From positions 1-5,057 of the forward strand of contig JAFGIT010000242.1 of assembly GCA_016929465.1 (NCBI GenBank): a DNA stretch of 5,057 bases, in the 5' to 3' direction. Every line of letters starts with the position of its first letter. Within the stretch, counting starts at the first letter, position 1. This document shows positions 1 to 4,990 of the stretch, piece after piece. The DNA comes from JAFGIT01 sp016929465 [NCBI: Candidatus Coatesbacteria bacterium]. Lineage in GTDB: Bacteria; B130-G9. Position numbers and translations under genes: made by a program. Under the pieces are notes generated by a model, which saw only the letters and a list, made by a program, of their open reading frames with translations, was not told the DNA's origin and did not search any database.

Positions 1-982
1 CGAGTTCCGGCTCGTCGATGCATATGAGCGGCGGCGGGTCAGGACTCATCAGTATGGCGACAAGCGCCAGCATGCGCATAGCGCCGTCGGAGAGATCATC
101 TGGCGAGAAGCCAGCCTTATTCTCGAAAGGCCTTTCGAGCCAGGATAAGATCACCTTACCATCACCGCCTTGCGGAGGGAATCTGATGTCACGCAGATCT
201 GGACAGGTAATCTTCAGCACATCGAGCATTTCTCCCCAAACGTCAGGATGCGTTTGGCTTACAGCGTTAAGGACAGCCACTGCATTCTCGCACCTGCGGA
301 ATACCCGCAGGTCGGGCCTAATGGTCTGCGGTCTCCGCATTGGAGATTCAGGCCCCACCTCGATAGGAAGATAATGCGCCCAACTCTCCAGCTCCCGCAG
401 CAGCCCGTGTTGACGCGAGTACTCTGTGGGATTCCTAATCTGAAAAATGGCCAATTCAGACTCGCTCTGAACCTGTATCTCATGGGGAGCAGGAAATGGC
501 CCATCCGGGGCAGGGAGTGGCCCGAAGTGCATTGTCACCTTGCCTGGAGTATCTCTTCCCCGCGACATGATAACCTCCTTAATGACCTCTATTCCGTCAG
601 AATCCGGCTCATCCGGATTCTCCGGTTCCCAGCCAGGCACCCACATATCCTCGGAAAGGATGATCGGAAACGTACCGCGTGCTCCGATGGAAATGGCGTA
701 AGCAAACGCCGGCTCTGCGTGGCCAACTGCCCCGCTGCTTGCGAAATCGAGGGTGAATTCCAGGCCCGCCTCTCCGCTCCTGTGCCGAACACCGGGCATG
801 CCTCCTCGCCGCAAGATCCCCTCGCCAAGCCCGCCCCTCGCTGCCTCATTCAGCAGCGCAAACACATCCATGAAGTTGGACTTGCCGCAGCCGTTGGGCC
901 CAATGAGGACGTTTAGCGGCTCCATATCGAGGCTGACGTCTTTGAGACTGCGATAGCCTTTAATCTCGATGTGCTTGAGCAT
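1..982 (-). CDS. AAA_21/RecF-like ABC-type ATPase (ATPase 2), 3' end beyond window
   Basis: An open frame from an ATG at 982 reads without a stop to the left edge (327 complete codons); the C-terminus lies outside the window. Residues 1-40 form the usual SMC/RecF-like start: an ExKGYRSL strand, then NVLIG and a Walker A at 28-35 (GPNGCGKS). An ABC-signature-like LSDGAMRML lies near 297-305 and a Walker B, LICIDEPEL, at 319-327, right at the edge. The middle (about 100-290) is specific to this protein, with an acidic, proline-rich stretch near 113-130. A Shine-Dalgarno AAGGTG at 996-991, 8 bases before the ATG, supports the start. It is a distant paralog of ATPase 1: both share the NVLIGxNGxGKSNF block and the LSDG/IDEPEL core, but the middles differ. 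Known for the family: ATP-driven dimerisation, often with a nuclease or other effector. Inferred: a defence or DNA-surveillance ATPase. The family call is firm; the substrate is unknown. Confidence 0.9.
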   Translation of the reverse strand, partial: MLKHIEIKGYRSLKDVSLDMEPLNVLIGPNGCGKSNFMDVFALLNEAARGGLGEGILRRGGMPGVRHRSGEAGLEFTLDFASSGAVGHAEPAFAYAISIGARGTFPIILSEDMWVPGWEPENPDEPDSDGIEVIKEVIMSRGRDTPGKVTMHFGPLPAPDGPFPAPHEIQVQSESELAIFQIRNPTEYSRQHGLLRELESWAHYLPIEVGPESPMRRPQTIRPDLRVFRRCENAVAVLNAVSQTHPDVWGEMLDVLKITCPDLRDIRFPPQGGDGKVILSWLERPFENKAGFSPDDLSDGAMRMLALVAILMSPDPPPLICIDEPEL

Positions 983-1105: not shown

Positions 1106-1780
1106 CTATTGGGCAAGACCCTCAAGTTTCGTCAGCCATTCATTGAAATGGTGGCATTTCTTCCGCATCCTCTCCAAACCGATCTGACCTGCTATCAGGG
1201 AGCCGTGAAGTGGCTTGCGATAGCGACGATATAGCGCATCCAGTCGGGCGCTCGGGTGCGTTGACGGATTGTCGTCTATTTCCTCAGGGCTCCTGAAGGT
1301 CGCTGCGATTTGGATTAGAGCCGAGGTCTGATCGGGACCATCCGGAAAGGCCCTCGGTATCTCCGCCGGCTCTGAAAACAAAAGCGACTCGAACTCATGA
1401 AGCTGGCAATACGGAATAAACCTTTCGCTGCCCATATCGAGCCCGAATTGCTCCTCAACGAATCTGACTCGCTCGAAACAGTCTTTGCCCTGCGGGCTAG
1501 CGCGGCCAGGGAAGTCATCGGGTAGTCCATAGTAATCGAACATCGTGGTTACGGCCGCGGCGCTTGAATCTCGCAACAGATTCCTCAGCTCCCGATTCAC
1601 CGTCCGCCCATAGCATCCCGGGCTAAGGCCGCCCTTGAAATCGGGACCAGTCTTCACGATTTTGGTCGTCAGAATCTTCGGGATCAGGAAAATTCCGCGT
1701 TGCTCGAAGTGGGAGGCAAGCACGGTCCGCACAAAGCGCTCCTCAGTCTGCCCTTCGACATAAACGAGGACCTTCGTCAA
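1106..1780 (-). CDS. DUF4276 family protein, TOPRIM-like putative effector
   Basis: A 224-residue protein whose whole length matches the DUF4276 (PF14103) pattern as I know it. Residues 3-14 are KVLVYVEGQTEE, a beta strand followed by an invariant Glu-Gly (E9, G10) as in TOPRIM-like folds. FDYYGLPDDFPG is at 81-92, with acidic D82, D88 and D89. HEFESLLFS is at 128-136. DDNPSTHPSARL lies near 169-180, and the C-terminus carries GLERMRKKCHHFNEWL near 201-216. The conserved acidic residues could bind a metal, which would fit a nuclease or related phosphotransfer activity; that is inference. The frame stays open upstream to an ATG at 1858, but the extra 26 residues overlap the ATPase 1 gene and are not domain-like. 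The TTG at 1780 has a good ribosome binding site and puts the KVLVYVEG strand at the N-terminus. It starts 2 bases after the ATPase 1 stop, so the two are probably translationally coupled and act together. Confidence 0.92.
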   Translation of the reverse strand: MTKVLVYVEGQTEERFVRTVLASHFEQRGIFLIPKILTTKIVKTGPDFKGGLSPGCYGRTVNRELRNLLRDSSAAAVTTMFDYYGLPDDFPGRASPQGKDCFERVRFVEEQFGLDMGSERFIPYCQLHEFESLLFSEPAEIPRAFPDGPDQTSALIQIAATFRSPEEIDDNPSTHPSARLDALYRRYRKPLHGSLIAGQIGLERMRKKCHHFNEWLTKLEGLAQ

Positions 1781-1782
1781 CG

Positions 1783-2862
1783 CTACGGCCTTCCGCCAAA
1801 AACATTCTTCTCCCAGAGGTCGCCGAGACCGTAATAGCCATCGAAATCCCTCAGCCAATCGGCAACTTCGGCGGCTTGAAGCCGTCTGATAGTCGTTGCT
1901 CGATTCTCTCGCTCCACGATGAGCAGGTCCTCTGGCCTCATTTGGTTGACCAACGGGACAGATTGTGTCGAGACGATGATCTGGGTGGTTTCCGATGTGC
2001 TGCTCAGCATCGATGCTAATACGGTGATAGCGTATGGGTGCAGCCCAAGCTCTGGCTCATCTATTATGATGGTTGATGGAGGCTCCGGTTGAAGCAGCAG
2101 TGTAGTCAAGCAGATGAATCGGAGGGTGCCATCCGAGAGATAATGCGCGAAAAATGGGCGATCAGAGCCCCTTTCCTGCCACTCCAACCTGATCTTATCC
2201 TGATTCTCGGTCATAGGCCGAAGAAGAAAGTCATCGAAGAATGGGGCGACCATTCGAATGGTATCCCGTATCTGGCTGTAATGCCCAGGCGAGGTCAACT
2301 GGAGCTTGCGAAGAAAGGCAGCCAGATTTGATGCATCGGGACGCAAATATATGTTGTCATTGATATCGGATACTTTCTTGACCTTCGCGCTCTCGCTCGT
2401 ATCTTGGAAGTGATACACCTTCCAGCTCTTGATGGCATCAGACATGTCCTTAGAAAAGCCGGGCCGAGATTTTCGGGCATACTCAGGTAATTTTGCTTCG
2501 CGGTGTCCCTCGCCCAAATGAATGCCTTGACGATTGAATCCGGTCGATTCATGCTTGACAAAAAGACCATCATCCGCGGTTGGGACGATCTTAAATGAGT
2601 AGTTGTTCTTCCCGCAACGCAGGAGGATTTCGATCTCCTTCGTTTCTCCATGACCAAAAAAGAGCAACGAATCAGCCCCACCAGACCTCAAAGCGTATTC
2701 CTGCAAGCGAAGCTCCATCATTTCTCGGAGTAATTCGAAAACGGAGACGAAATTGCTCTTGCCTGCGCCATTAGCGCCGATGAGGACATTGAGATTGGAG
2801 AGCTCGATCTCCTGCTCTCGAATCGATTTGAAACCGCTAATCTTGATCTTGTCGAGTTTCAT
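1783..2862 (-). CDS. AAA_21 ABC-type ATPase (ATPase 1), partner of DUF4276 protein
   Basis: A complete 359-residue ATPase of the AAA_21/RecF-like group (COG4637-like). The N-terminus carries a KISGFKSI strand, then Walker A at 29-36 (GANGAGKS). The middle, about 65-235, contains a W-K-V-Y-H-F-x-D-T-S block at 147-156 that I associate with ATPases paired with DUF4276. The signature LSDGTLRF is at 242-249, Walker B with catalytic Glu, TIIIDEPELGLHP, at 264-276, and the switch strand IVSTQS at 296-301. The C-terminus ends in a G-L-G-x-L-W then N-x-F-G-G-R-P tail. Length is normal for the family and all core motifs are intact. The ATG at 2862 is the first possible start after an in-frame TGA, but its Shine-Dalgarno is weak (GGGTGA 12 bases away). 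Sampled lines look less GC-rich than comM (43% and 48% against 67%). Inferred role: a sensor or motor controlling the DUF4276 protein, cytoplasmic, possibly in phage defence. Confidence 0.93.
   Translation of the reverse strand: MKLDKIKISGFKSIREQEIELSNLNVLIGANGAGKSNFVSVFELLREMMELRLQEYALRSGGADSLLFFGHGETKEIEILLRCGKNNYSFKIVPTADDGLFVKHESTGFNRQGIHLGEGHREAKLPEYARKSRPGFSKDMSDAIKSWKVYHFQDTSESAKVKKVSDINDNIYLRPDASNLAAFLRKLQLTSPGHYSQIRDTIRMVAPFFDDFLLRPMTENQDKIRLEWQERGSDRPFFAHYLSDGTLRFICLTTLLLQPEPPSTIIIDEPELGLHPYAITVLASMLSSTSETTQIIVSTQSVPLVNQMRPEDLLIVERENRATTIRRLQAAEVADWLRDFDGYYGLGDLWEKNVFGGRP
1789..1794 (-). promoter_or_regulatory. Ribosome binding site deciding the TTG start of the DUF4276 gene
   Basis: GGAAGG on the minus strand, 8 bases before the TTG at 1780, lies inside the last codons of ATPase 1. 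It is the main reason to prefer the TTG over the in-frame ATG at 1858. Translation would restart just after the upstream TAG (1785-1783). Confidence 0.6.
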
Positions 2863-2970: not shown

Positions 2971-2994
2971 AGGCAGGCTCTAACCAAACTGCCT
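2971..2994 (-). terminator. Weak hairpin at the 3' end of comM
   Basis: AGGCAG (2994-2989) and CTGCCT (2976-2971) form a perfect 6-bp stem around a 12-base loop that contains the comM stop codon. No T-run follows, so it is a poor intrinsic terminator. It may be a partial terminator, an mRNA-end structure or chance. Confidence 0.2.
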
Positions 2995-4509
2995 GTCCAG
3001 TGTCCTATACTGTATCGCCTCGGATATGTGTTCCGGGAGGAGCTTCGGCTCGTTGGCGAGGTCGGCGATCGTGCGGGCAACTTTCAGGATGCGGTCGTAG
3101 GCTCGGGCACTCATGCCCATGCGGTTGATCGCGGACTCCATGATCGATTCGCATTCGGCGTCGAGCTTGCAGTGCTGCTTGAGGTCCTTGGAGAGCATGT
3201 GCGCGTTGCAGAATATCGGCTCATCCACGAAACGAGCCTGCTGGACCTTTCGCGCTTCGTTGATTCTCTCTCGTATGACCTGCGACTCTTCGCCAGGCTT
3301 CCATTTGGCAAGGTCCGAATAGGGCACGACTGGAACGTCCAGGTGGATATCTATGCGGTCCAGAAGCGGCCCAGATATCCGCGAGCGATAGCGCTGAATC
3401 TGAACCGGGGTGCACTTGCAGGCGACCTTTGGGTTCGTCAGGTGGCCGCACGGGCAAGGATTCATCGCGGCGGCGAGCATGAACCGGGTCGGGAATTTCA
3501 CTGTCAACGCGGCTCTTGCAATGGTGACGGAGCCATCTTCGAGCGGCTGCCTCAGCACTTCGAGGACGTTGCGGTGGAACTCGGGGAGCTCATCGAGAAA
3601 TAGGACGCCGTTGTGGGCAAGGCAGACCTCACCAGGCCTGGGGTATGCACCGCCGCCGATGAGGCCAGCATCGGAGATGGTGTGATGCGGCGACCGGAAG
3701 GGCCTCGTCGCGACCAGTGATTGCCCACTCCGCAAGAGGCCGGCGACGCTGTGGATCTTCGTGGTCTCGAGCGCCTCTTCGAGCGTCATCTCCGGCAGGA
3801 TCGTGGGGAGTCGCTTTGCGAGCATCGTCTTCCCGGCCCCAGGTGGGCCTATCATTATCACATTGTGACCACCAGCGACCGCGACCTCGAGCGCACGCTT
3901 TGCGTGCAGCTGCCCTTTGACGTCGGCGAAATCTACGCGATAGTGGGAGGCGTCCACGAAGGCCTGTTCCATGTCAACGACAGTCTTGGGCACTTCTTCG
4001 TTGCCATTGATGAAGTCGACCGCCTGTGCAAGCGTCGTCATCGCAAAGACGTCAACGCCATCGACAACGCCTGCCTCATTGGCATTCGGTTCTGGGACTA
4101 TCATCCCCACGCTATCCGTGTCCCTGGCCATCATGGTCATGGGCAGAATGCCAGGGACTTCGCGGACGCGACCATCGAGCGAGAGTTCGCCGATGAGGCA
4201 GTATTTTGAGAGGGCCGGTCTCTCGATAAAGCCTTGTGCAGCGAGGATGCCGATCGCTATCGGCAGATCGAGGCCGGCTCCCTGTTTTTTAACGCCGGCG
4301 GGTGCAAGATTGACTGTTATCCGACCGTCTGGAAGGTCGAATCCTGCATTTCGAAGGGCAGCTATAACCCGCTCCTTGCTCTCCTTTACGGCCGTGTCGG
4401 GGAGGCCGACAACGGAGTAGATGCAGGTGCCTGGGGAGAGATCGACCTCCACCTCTATCATATTTGCCTTGATCCCGACTACAGCACAGCTCATAACCTT
4501 AGCAAGCAT
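2980..4509 (-). CDS. comM: ComM/YifB-family Mg-chelatase-like AAA+ ATPase
   Basis: A complete 509-residue protein, the normal length for the family. Residues 1 to about 170 are the ChlI-type domain with a Lon-protease-like S5 fold, including the SVVGLPDTAVKESKERV block at 32-48 and NLAPAGVKKQGAGLDLPIA at 67-85. The AAA+ module follows: Walker A GPPGAGKT at 221-228, the FRSPHHT block at 271-277, Walker B GVLFLDEL at 301-308, a cysteine group at C352, C354, C364 and C366, and LLDRIDIH with the putative arginine finger R385. The Mg_chelatase_C region includes SARAYDRILKVARTIADL near 467-484 and ends TLDRQFG. ComM is a hexameric DNA branch-migration helicase that helps integrate incoming DNA in natural transformation. 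It is widespread in bacteria, including non-competent ones, so it does not prove competence here. The ATG at 4509 has AGAGG 6 bases upstream. It is divergent from the beta-helix gene and codirectional with the ATPase cluster. Confidence 0.97.
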   Translation of the reverse strand: MLAKVMSCAVVGIKANMIEVEVDLSPGTCIYSVVGLPDTAVKESKERVIAALRNAGFDLPDGRITVNLAPAGVKKQGAGLDLPIAIGILAAQGFIERPALSKYCLIGELSLDGRVREVPGILPMTMMARDTDSVGMIVPEPNANEAGVVDGVDVFAMTTLAQAVDFINGNEEVPKTVVDMEQAFVDASHYRVDFADVKGQLHAKRALEVAVAGGHNVIMIGPPGAGKTMLAKRLPTILPEMTLEEALETTKIHSVAGLLRSGQSLVATRPFRSPHHTISDAGLIGGGAYPRPGEVCLAHNGVLFLDELPEFHRNVLEVLRQPLEDGSVTIARAALTVKFPTRFMLAAAMNPCPCGHLTNPKVACKCTPVQIQRYRSRISGPLLDRIDIHLDVPVVPYSDLAKWKPGEESQVIRERINEARKVQQARFVDEPIFCNAHMLSKDLKQHCKLDAECESIMESAINRMGMSARAYDRILKVARTIADLANEPKLLPEHISEAIQYRTLDRQFG

Positions 4510-4649: not shown

Positions 4650-4690
4650 TCTACTTGGATAAACGAATAATGAATCGGTCTCTCTCGTGC

Positions 4691-4695
4691 GAGGA
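4691..4695 (+). promoter_or_regulatory. Ribosome binding site favouring a GTG start at 4703
   Basis: GAGGA with 7 bases before the in-frame GTG at 4703. The alternatives, TTG at 4655 and ATG at 4670, have no comparable site. Starting at the GTG gives a textbook signal peptide, whereas the ATG adds an acidic S-C-E-D-W segment ahead of it. Confidence 0.5.
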
Positions 4696-4702
4696 TTGGG
4701 CT

Positions 4703-4990
4703 GTGAGGCTACTGCAAGTCGTCTGGGTGAGTTGTCTTCTCCTGCTGTTGTCATCGCATTCGGCGATGGCGGAGAAGTATCAAGTCAATCTTGATGGGAC
4801 TGGCGATTTCACCGTAATTCAAGACGCGATTAACGCTGCAGACGATGGCGACACGGTAATAGTCCACCCCGGAACCTACCATGAGAATATCTGCTTCAAT
4901 GGCAAGAACATAATCTTGAGCTCGATCGATCCCGGGGATGTTGAGATCGTCAACTCGACGGTCATTGACGGGTGTGACCTCAGATTGTAG
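4703..4990 (+). CDS. Secreted right-handed parallel beta-helix protein, apparently truncated
   Basis: The preferred GTG start gives 95 residues; the ATG at 4670 would add 11. The N-terminus is a classic Sec signal peptide: MRLLQ, a hydrophobic core VVWVSCLLLLL, then a polar segment ending in AMA with likely cleavage before EKY. The mature part opens with a beta-helix entry motif: GTGDFTVIQDAINAADDGDT followed by VIVHPGTYHENI and a GKNIILSS strand, ending at STVIDG. In full proteins of this type (pectate-lyase-like, NosD-like or DUF1565-like repeats) the IDG turn is followed by many more coils. Here five more residues (CDLRL) precede a TAG at 4988-4990, and no other frame restores a beta-helix pattern. 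One to two coils cannot make a stable helix, so this is probably the 5' remnant of a longer gene broken by insertion, deletion or frameshift. Function of the ancestor: extracellular, perhaps polysaccharide-binding; not known. Confidence 0.7.
   Translation: MRLLQVVWVSCLLLLLSSHSAMAEKYQVNLDGTGDFTVIQDAINAADDGDTVIVHPGTYHENICFNGKNIILSSIDPGDVEIVNSTVIDGCDLRL

What the first reader, a model, noticed from the sequence alone, without database searches (positions are those of the whole stretch)
1106..2862. Coupled ABC-type ATPase and DUF4276 pair: candidate two-component defence module
ATPase 1 has intact Walker A, LSDG signature and Walker B motifs. It is followed after 2 bases by a DUF4276 protein with a TOPRIM-like VEG start and conserved acidic motifs. 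Established comparison: in PARIS (AriA/AriB) an ABC ATPase pairs with a separate TOPRIM protein, and in OLD nucleases and Gabija GajA the two parts are fused. That this pair acts against phage or plasmids is inference. I am not aware of a characterised system defined by this exact pair, but I cannot search.
Basis: partly seen in the sequence, partly recalled or inferred. Interest (0 to 1): 0.6.

Follow-up and report, generated by a model that had tools for sequence, protein, structure and literature searches.

The report
Split ATPase–nuclease pair, HEC-01 type
Two neighbouring bacterial genes encode an ATP-driven switch protein and a partner shaped like a DNA/RNA-cutting enzyme; they look like a known candidate antiviral system whose action has not been tested here.

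Summary
On the minus strand an OLD/SMC-type ABC ATPase (1783-2862, 359 aa) is followed after 2 bases by a DUF4276 protein (1106-1780, TTG start, 224 aa). The pair is already catalogued: PADLOC's best models are HEC-01A (4e-144) and HEC-01B (6e-74), so it belongs to candidate defence system HEC-01. 'DUF4276' occurs in no held paper; the HEC preprint is not held. Added here: (1) the DUF4276 model (pLDDT 94) matches OLD TOPRIM structures best, with PARIS close behind; E9, E13, D82, E131 and K189 follow the order of the OLD active site, but Tyr replaces the second Asp of DxD; (2) an ATPase lies upstream in 52 of 55 relatives (the other 3 start at contig edges) and 36 of 36 loci from two genome draws, 4 of them already in the first set; (3) an LGxLW...GG tail marks most DUF4276-linked ATPases; (4) some relatives sit inside type III RM, BREX or Hma clusters. 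A second ATPase (2-982) is probably half of another pair. Most likely: an ATPase-gated TOPRIM nuclease against phage or plasmid; activity, trigger and substrate untested.

The parts
1783..2862 (-). ABC/OLD-type ATPase, 359 aa (HEC-01A)
   Evidence: model pLDDT 94 with SMC/Rad50/OLD/PtuA/GajA heads among the nearest structures
2752..2781 (-). Walker A, IGANGAGKSN (residues 28-37)
   Evidence: sequence; G29, N31, G32, G34, K35, S36, N37 invariant in 40 sequences
2128..2139 (-). ABC signature LSDG (residues 242-245)
   Evidence: S243, D244, G245 invariant
2056..2073 (-). Walker B with D268 and E269 (residues 264-269)
   Evidence: D268, E269 invariant
1786..1830 (-). C-terminal tail GLGDLWEKNVFGGRP (residues 345-359), proposed docking element for the DUF4276 partner
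   Evidence: motif in 40 of 40 aligned ATPases and 29 of 36 from the genome draws; 11 of 15 DUF4276-adjacent against 0 of 15 other AAA_21 ATPases. Docking role is inference
1106..1780 (-). DUF4276 protein, TOPRIM-fold putative nuclease, 224 aa (HEC-01B)
1742..1759 (-). TOPRIM VEGQTE motif, E9 and E13
   Evidence: E9 47 of 48, E13 47 of 48
1535..1537 (-). D82, first Asp of the TOPRIM DxD position (Y84 replaces the second)
   Evidence: D82 48 of 48 and 35 of 36 in the genome draws, the other a gap
1388..1399 (-). HEFE, H128-E131
   Evidence: invariant in 48; E131 in 35 of 36 in the genome draws, the other a gap
1214..1216 (-). K189, counterpart by order of the OLD catalytic lysine
   Evidence: 48 of 48; 27 of 36 in the genome draws
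2..982 (-). Second HEC-01A-like ATPase, cut off by the contig end; probably the first gene of a second pair completed on contig G000:C183
   Evidence: fitting C-terminal fragment at the end of C183 beside a DUF4276 gene; homologous complete pair in sister genome G002:C65

Best explanation
The pair is a HEC-01 module: a split OLD-type ATPase-nuclease. The ABC ATPase (HEC-01A) dimerises head to head, senses an infection cue and controls a partner bound at or near its conserved C-terminal tail. The DUF4276 protein (HEC-01B) is a TOPRIM-fold, two-metal nuclease that is held inactive until the ATPase releases or activates it, and then cuts nucleic acid (DNA or tRNA) to stop a phage or plasmid, often as a back-up layer beside restriction systems. 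Shown here: gene coupling, match to the family models, predicted fold, conserved acidic site, co-divergence, embedding beside restriction systems in some relatives. Inferred: dimerisation, complex formation, tail docking, nuclease activity, cue, substrate and antiviral effect.
For: PADLOC HEC-01A 4e-144 and HEC-01B 6e-74 are the best hits. DUF4276 model pLDDT 94. Foldseek's first four hits are OLD C-terminal chains, E 2.7e-4 to 1.0e-3. Second look: 6nk8_A Z 9.3, rmsd 4.3, 174 aligned; 8ux9_A of the PARIS complex Z 8.1, rmsd 5.0, 178 aligned; next row (a lumazine synthase entry) Z 5.9. E9, E13, D82, E131 and K189 are conserved; among 36 members from genome draws position 84 is D in 14 and E in 8, restoring DxD/E. 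By order and rough spacing these fit OLD residues E400, E404, D455, D457, E508 and K562 (PMC6755086, passages). ATPase upstream in 52 of 55 and 36 of 36 loci (4 loci shared). Distance correlation ATPase-DUF4276 r = 0.93 over 39 pairs; partial r given recA 0.93 over 24. Embedding: between type III Mod and Res (L026, L030; L028), between BREX PglX and PglZ (L034) and beside HmaB (L016), and in two of four plasmid regions opened.
Against: No activity data. The window's own visible neighbours are yifB and a second ATPase, not an RM operon. Enrichment is only suggestive: 6 of 52 loci against 0 of 28 recA control loci, p = 0.07, with queries taken from the case loci themselves; the protein-level test is p = 0.006 or 0.15 depending on how control rows are counted. 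Position 84 is Tyr, not the second Asp. TM-scores to OLD are modest (0.36-0.45 by query length, rmsd 6.8-8.4), and Z of 8-9 is only a little above what that tool calls common for models without a clear match. Residue correspondence is by order, not by superposition. OLD-family ATPases can have non-defence roles (Cran1, PMC12796447, start of abstract and passages).
Confidence: 0.7

Rival explanations
1. Genome-maintenance module: an OLD/RecF/Rad50-like ATPase with a TOPRIM nuclease used in repair or cell-cycle control, not in defence.
For: The ATPase model is nearest to SMC and Rad50 heads. Cran1 is an OLD-family ATPase with an essential cell-cycle role (PMC12796447, start of abstract and passages). 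HEC-01 genes lie downstream of yifB on the same strand in the three genomes of the family with a yifB match over cut-off (directly in two, about 3.4 kb away in G002).
Against: Patchy: PF14103 at E 0.001 in 5 of 196 genomes of one class (3 over cut-off) and 26 of 201 of one phylum (24 over cut-off), and in 0 of 14 control genomes. On 12 plasmid records. Divergence follows recA only partly, r about 0.6. In sister G002 the first DUF4276 is a fragment without ATPase.
Confidence: 0.12
2. Toxin-antitoxin or addiction pair: the TOPRIM protein is a toxin and the ATPase neutralises it, for plasmid or island maintenance.
For: Tight two-gene arrangement and plasmid carriage. Pfam's AAA_21 description mentions AbiEii.
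Against: By analogy only: in the related split system WonAB the effector needs its ATPase for toxicity, which the authors say rules out simple sequestration (PMC12137116, passages).
Confidence: 0.1
3. Accessory of the adjacent restriction systems, for example a repair or regulatory partner of Mod/Res or BREX, rather than an independent effector.
For: Placed inside RM and BREX gene runs on the same strand.
Against: In the window no RM gene is seen, and across relatives the neighbouring systems are of several types (types I, III and IV RM, BREX, Hma).
Confidence: 0.08

Closest known systems
HEC-01 (Hma-embedded candidate 1, PADLOC-DB 2.0.0; Payne et al. preprint 10.1101/2024.01.29.577857, not held, not read)
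   Same: Both genes have HEC-01A and HEC-01B as best models and are adjacent
   Different: Not beside an Hma gene in this window; relative L016 sits beside HmaB. A second HEC-01A-like gene follows
PARIS (AriA/AriB; class 4 OLD)
   Same: Separate ATPase and TOPRIM genes (PMC12796447); DUF4276 model matches 8ux9_A of the PARIS complex (Z 8.1; that chain A is AriB is recalled)
   Different: The effector matches only HEC-01B models in PADLOC at E 0.01 or better, and the ATPase scores HEC-01A far above AriA
OLD class 1/2 and Gabija GajA
   Same: ATPase head and TOPRIM fold; fitting active-site order
   Different: There the domains are fused, and Gabija has a helicase gene; here split, and no UvrD-type helicase family among the five window ORFs scanned
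WonAB (Vibrio cholerae WASA-1)
   Same: Two-gene OLD-type ATPase plus nuclease, nuclease modelled on the ATPase's C-terminal extensions (PMC12137116, passages)
   Different: WonB has a PD-(D/E)xK fold, not TOPRIM (same source)

Membership tests
HEC-01 | ATPase matches HEC-01A models best | tested here: met
   PDLC04175 4.1e-144; first model not named HEC-01 is AriA at 4.4e-29. One ATPase-length model (PDLC04144) is labelled HEC-01B, so the labels are not quite clean
HEC-01 | Partner matches HEC-01B models best | tested here: met
   PDLC04188 6e-74; all five hits are HEC-01B
HEC-01 | A and B adjacent on one strand | tested here: met
   2-base gap
HEC-01 | PADLOC's own score cut-offs and spacing rule | not tested
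   The tool gives E-values, not the rule
HEC-01 | Antiviral activity | not testable with these tools
   Several HECs reported active, HEC-06 named (PMC12988326, passages) and HEC-04 (PMC12111858, passages); no statement on HEC-01 activity seen
PARIS | Separate TOPRIM effector of the AriB family | tested here: inconclusive
   Similar fold (8ux9_A Z 8.1), but no AriB model among PADLOC hits; that the library holds AriB models is recalled
PARIS | AriA-family ATPase | tested here: inconclusive
   AriA models match at 4.4e-29 and 2.7e-22 but far below HEC-01A
PARIS | Triggered by Ocr-like proteins, cuts tRNA | not testable with these tools
   Literature passages only
Gabija / fused OLD | ATPase and TOPRIM in one polypeptide | tested here: not met
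   359-aa ATPase ends before a separate DUF4276 gene
TOPRIM superfamily | Fold | tested here: met
   Best structures are OLD C-terminal TOPRIM regions; predicted model, modest TM-scores
TOPRIM superfamily | Conserved Glu after the first strand | tested here: met
   E9, 47 of 48 and 30 of 36 in the genome draws, the other 6 gaps
TOPRIM superfamily | DxD motif | tested here: inconclusive
   D82 conserved; position 84 is Y in all 48 close sequences and D 14, Y 12, E 8, N 1, gap 1 in the 36 from genome draws

The most novel reading that the evidence does not exclude
HEC-01 is its own class of split OLD nuclease, separate from PARIS. A C-terminal LGxLW...GG tail on the ATPase docks or gates a TOPRIM effector whose second catalytic Asp has become Tyr, giving a nuclease with altered metal chemistry or substrate. 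In this candidate phylum, tandem divergent pairs downstream of yifB act as a multi-sensor array with parallel effectors.
Probability: 0.3. Interest if true: 0.55.

Novelty: new member of a known kind. Interest (0 to 1): 0.32.

Why it matters
It gives DUF4276, absent by name from the held papers, a testable function: a TOPRIM nuclease controlled by an OLD-type ATPase. It also names residues and a tail that can be mutated. If active, it would show that split ATPase-TOPRIM immunity extends beyond PARIS and is used as a back-up beside restriction systems.

Tried and rejected
Rejected: fused OLD/Gabija membership (domains split). Simple toxin-antitoxin reading, on analogy with WonAB only. Phage-borne origin: no match in 50,697 phage records; two confirmed loci in the 2.9 million viral contigs, both with the ATPase upstream.

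Led nowhere: PDB sequence search with the DUF4276 protein found nothing at E 1, and the profile only a ribosomal protein at E 0.69. Class and phylum searches around the window hold only 4 genomes. The HEC preprint is not held. Searches for DUF4276, PF14103 and HEC-01A found 0 papers. Among the 16 papers, judged by title except for two that were opened, HEC-01 as a defence system was seen in one (PMC12724379, passage). PMC7544218 is not held. In the DefensePredictor text the terms TOPRIM, HEC, ABC ATPase and AAA ATPase were not found. PMC13356809 names HEC-03 only, and PMC10855318 lists HECs under unknown mechanism (passages).

Limits of the enrichment test. 138 neighbours of 48 loci (within two genes, 120-1300 aa) were scanned against PADLOC at 1e-25: 92 and 63 families matched, against 6 families, each matched by one protein (five BrxA models and one RT), for 92 neighbours of recA in 27 loci. 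recA was found in 35 of 40 genomes asked and 28 regions were taken. Twenty proteins, picked by hand as likely defence genes or near neighbours, were then scanned one by one; 19 of them belong to the 138, and 16 are counted as defence. L067's match to an RT/PolA model was left out as probably DNA polymerase I; L015:7311 and L015:2765 (yifB) had none. So 16 of 138 is a floor, and the case side was weeded while the control was not. Fisher p = 0.006 if the five BrxA rows are one protein, 0.15 if all six control rows are different proteins. The test by locus dropped L041, L059 and L061, used the 16 defence proteins of the case loci as queries (own locus left out), which favours the case side, and gave 6 of 52 against 0 of 28, p = 0.07. 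The ORF caller is crude.

Limits of the other counts. A1 uses 47 of 55 loci plus the window (L059, L061, L062, L064, L068, L069 broken or partial; L063 cut; L066 left out beside the similar L058). A2 uses 39 loci plus the window, leaving out L031 (overlong start), L058, L066 and partial ATPases. The two genome draws were centred on genomes already known to carry the pair, so 4 of their 36 loci (L135, L136, L140, L144) repeat the first set; four of the 36 (L138, L139, L165, L166) are below the Pfam cut-off and one (L164) passes only with its neighbours in the frame. Four matches had no locus; three of these were seen later through AAA_21 loci (L196, L198, L211). Some of the 36 frames are broken or partial, hence the gaps; E13 is E or D in 23 of 36 there. 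In one search only 30 of the 49 AAA_21 matches had loci, and some of the 15 unpaired ATPases look like ordinary ABC transporters, so that control is weak. Only 4 of 12 plasmid records were opened.

Full report
What is there. The window is a whole contig (G000:C381, 5057 bases) of an assembly of 3.19 Mb in 423 contigs, 86% complete. On the minus strand it reads: yifB (2980-4509, TIGR00368 2.5e-190), ABC ATPase (1783-2862), DUF4276 protein (1106-1780) and a second ATPase (2-982) cut by the contig end. The DUF4276 start is TTG at 1780, two bases after the ATPase stop; relatives start at about the same residue.

Identity. Pfam gives AAA_21 and DUF4276. PADLOC gives HEC-01A 4.1e-144 and HEC-01B 6e-74 as best models; the second ATPase also has HEC-01A first, 1.9e-41. 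The pair is therefore a member of a catalogued candidate, HEC-01. HECs are Hma-embedded candidates; several are reported active, with HEC-06 and HEC-04 named (PMC12988326 and PMC12111858, passages). HEC-01 itself was seen only as a detection in Desulfovibrio piger (PMC12724379, passage). The original preprint is not held, so what it reports on HEC-01 is unknown to me.

Coupling. A scan of GTDB genome contigs gave 55 loci with a DUF4276 relative. An ATPase relative lies upstream in 52; the other three (L056, L059, L061) have about 100 bases or fewer of upstream DNA. In 48 of 49 loci with a clean frame the gap is -8 to +16 bases, and in 34 of these 48 it is a 4-base overlap. In two draws (196 genomes of one class, 201 of one phylum; 5 and 26 genomes with a PF14103 match at E 0.001, 3 and 24 over cut-off) all 36 DUF4276 loci fetched have an ATPase upstream on the same strand, ending 8 to 276 bases before the Pfam match. 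The draws were centred on two genomes that carry the pair, and 4 of the 36 loci repeat the first set. ATPase and DUF4276 distances correlate at r = 0.93 over 39 pairs; none of 2000 permutations reaches it. In 24 genomes with recA the correlation is 0.96, against 0.60 and 0.62 with recA. They diverge together and only partly with the host.

Fold and site. AlphaFold2 gave mean pLDDT 94 for DUF4276 and 94 for the ATPase. Foldseek's first four hits for DUF4276 are C-terminal regions of OLD proteins (E 2.7e-4 to 1.0e-3, TM-score 0.36-0.45). VIA-align puts OLD entries at Z 8.7-9.3, PH0156 (2p62) at 9.1 and 8ux9_A of the PARIS complex at 8.1; the next row is 5.9. The tool warns that a best Z of 7-8 is common for models without a clear match. 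In Burkholderia OLD the metal site is E400, D455, D457 (metal A) and E404, T506, E508 (metal B), with K562 assisting (PMC6755086, passages). DUF4276 has E9, E13, D82, H128-E131 and K189 in the same order with similar spacing. This is matching by order, not by superposed coordinates, which the tools did not give. Position 84, the second Asp, is Tyr in all 48 close sequences; among the 36 from the genome draws it is D 14, Y 12, E 8, N 1, gap 1. D82 and E131 are kept in 35 of 36 each, the remaining one a gap; E13 is looser, E or D in 23 of 36. So DUF4276 as a family has the TOPRIM DxD/E position and the window's group has changed it. The ATPase model is nearest to SMC and Rad50 heads by Z, with PtuA, retron ATPases, OLD and GajA among the Foldseek hits.

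A tail that marks the partner. The ATPase ends in GLGDLWEKNVFGGRP. The LGxLW-type motif is in 40 of 40 aligned ATPases and 29 of 36 from the genome draws. Among 30 AAA_21 loci from six genomes it is in 11 of 15 that sit beside a DUF4276 gene and in 0 of 15 that do not. The motif-bearing ATPases are also closer relatives, and some of the unpaired ones look like ordinary ABC transporters, so shared descent may explain part of this. I propose that the tail docks or gates the nuclease; WonB is likewise modelled on the C-terminal extensions of WonA (PMC12137116, passages).

Surroundings in relatives. The pair lies between type III Mod and Res in L026 and L030 and L028, between PglX and PglZ in L034 and beside HmaB in L016, between a DrmD-like helicase and a type III methylase in L020, after type III genes in L063 and type I genes in L049, and before a type IV enzyme in L065. 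Of 12 plasmid records with a relative four regions were opened: in Aeromonas the pair follows an SNF2 protein and precedes a methyltransferase, in Ideonella it lies between a methyltransferase and Mrr, in Nostoc it lies beside a divergent AIPR gene, and a Piscirickettsia plasmid shows no RM neighbour. Not every locus has such a neighbour: in the second half of the neighbour set, mostly from Clostridia, no PADLOC family is matched by more than 2 of 69 proteins, and housekeeping families appear in both halves. Against recA neighbours the excess is plain in family counts (92 and 63 against 6), but PADLOC models overlap, and the tests by protein (p 0.006 or 0.15) and by locus (6 of 52 against 0 of 28, p = 0.07) are only suggestive.

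The window's own locus. The phylum holds four genomes here. In the three with a yifB match over cut-off, HEC-01 genes lie downstream of yifB on the same strand: directly in the window and G003:C136, and about 3.4 kb away, past genes on the other strand, in G002:C65. G003 and G002 have a type II-like methyltransferase in the locus. G002 keeps a 138-aa DUF4276 fragment without its ATPase, and a complete second pair. The window's second ATPase stops at residue 327; the end of contig C183 carries a fitting C-terminal fragment and a DUF4276 gene, with about 22 residues missing between by comparison with G002. A tandem of two different pairs is the likely arrangement, but no overlap joins the contigs.

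Mechanism. The best reading is an ATPase-gated TOPRIM nuclease for defence, as in PARIS (AriA senses, AriB is released and cuts tRNA; PMC12409363 and PMC12839542, passages). It works like PARIS but is filed as HEC-01: its effector matches only HEC-01B models, and its ATPase matches HEC-01A far above AriA. Substrate, trigger and activity are inference.

Noticed in passing
window 2-982 (-) and G000:C183 (L006) 7842-8725: A second, divergent HEC-01A-like ATPase is cut by the contig end; C183 ends with a fitting C-terminal fragment and its own DUF4276 gene, suggesting two tandem pairs.
   Followed up: partly
L015:5705-6376 (same as G003:C136): In the sister genome the TOPRIM glutamate E9 reads Lys (VKG instead of VEG), the only such change among 48; the effector may be impaired there.
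   Followed up: partly
L070 (G002:C65) 9296-9712 and 6000-7870: In another sister genome the first DUF4276 survives as a 138-aa fragment without ATPase while the second pair is complete: turnover in the same region.
   Followed up: partly
window 2980-4509; G003:C136; G002:C65: yifB lies upstream of HEC-01 genes on the same strand in three genera of this small phylum, with variable content between and after (methyltransferase; in G002 a 493-aa and a 315-aa gene without PADLOC match).
   Followed up: partly
G000 contigs C381, C183, C243, C145: All four DUF4276 matches of this genome have an ATPase directly upstream (only its C-terminal fragment on C183), with different best HEC-01A models for C381, C243 and C145; on C145 the DUF4276 is split over two frames.
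   Followed up: yes
PDB 2p62 (PH0156): A Pyrococcus protein of hypothetical function matches the DUF4276 model as well as OLD does (Z 9.1, 160 aligned), so it may be an unrecognised TOPRIM protein.
   Followed up: no
L201, L203, L205, L209, L211: Other AAA_21 ATPases of these genomes are followed by other small genes, some with VED/VEG-type starts (other possible TOPRIM partners; L211's is itself a weak DUF4276 match) and one that looks PIN-like; labels by eye only.
   Followed up: no
PADLOC model PDLC04144: A 395-position model labelled HEC-01B matches the ATPases, not the DUF4276 proteins; the label may be swapped.
   Followed up: no
window 4655-4990 (+): Start of a secreted repeat (beta-helix-like, by eye) protein that stops after 111 aa while a similar frame in L070 runs to 375 aa or more; possible truncation.
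   Followed up: no
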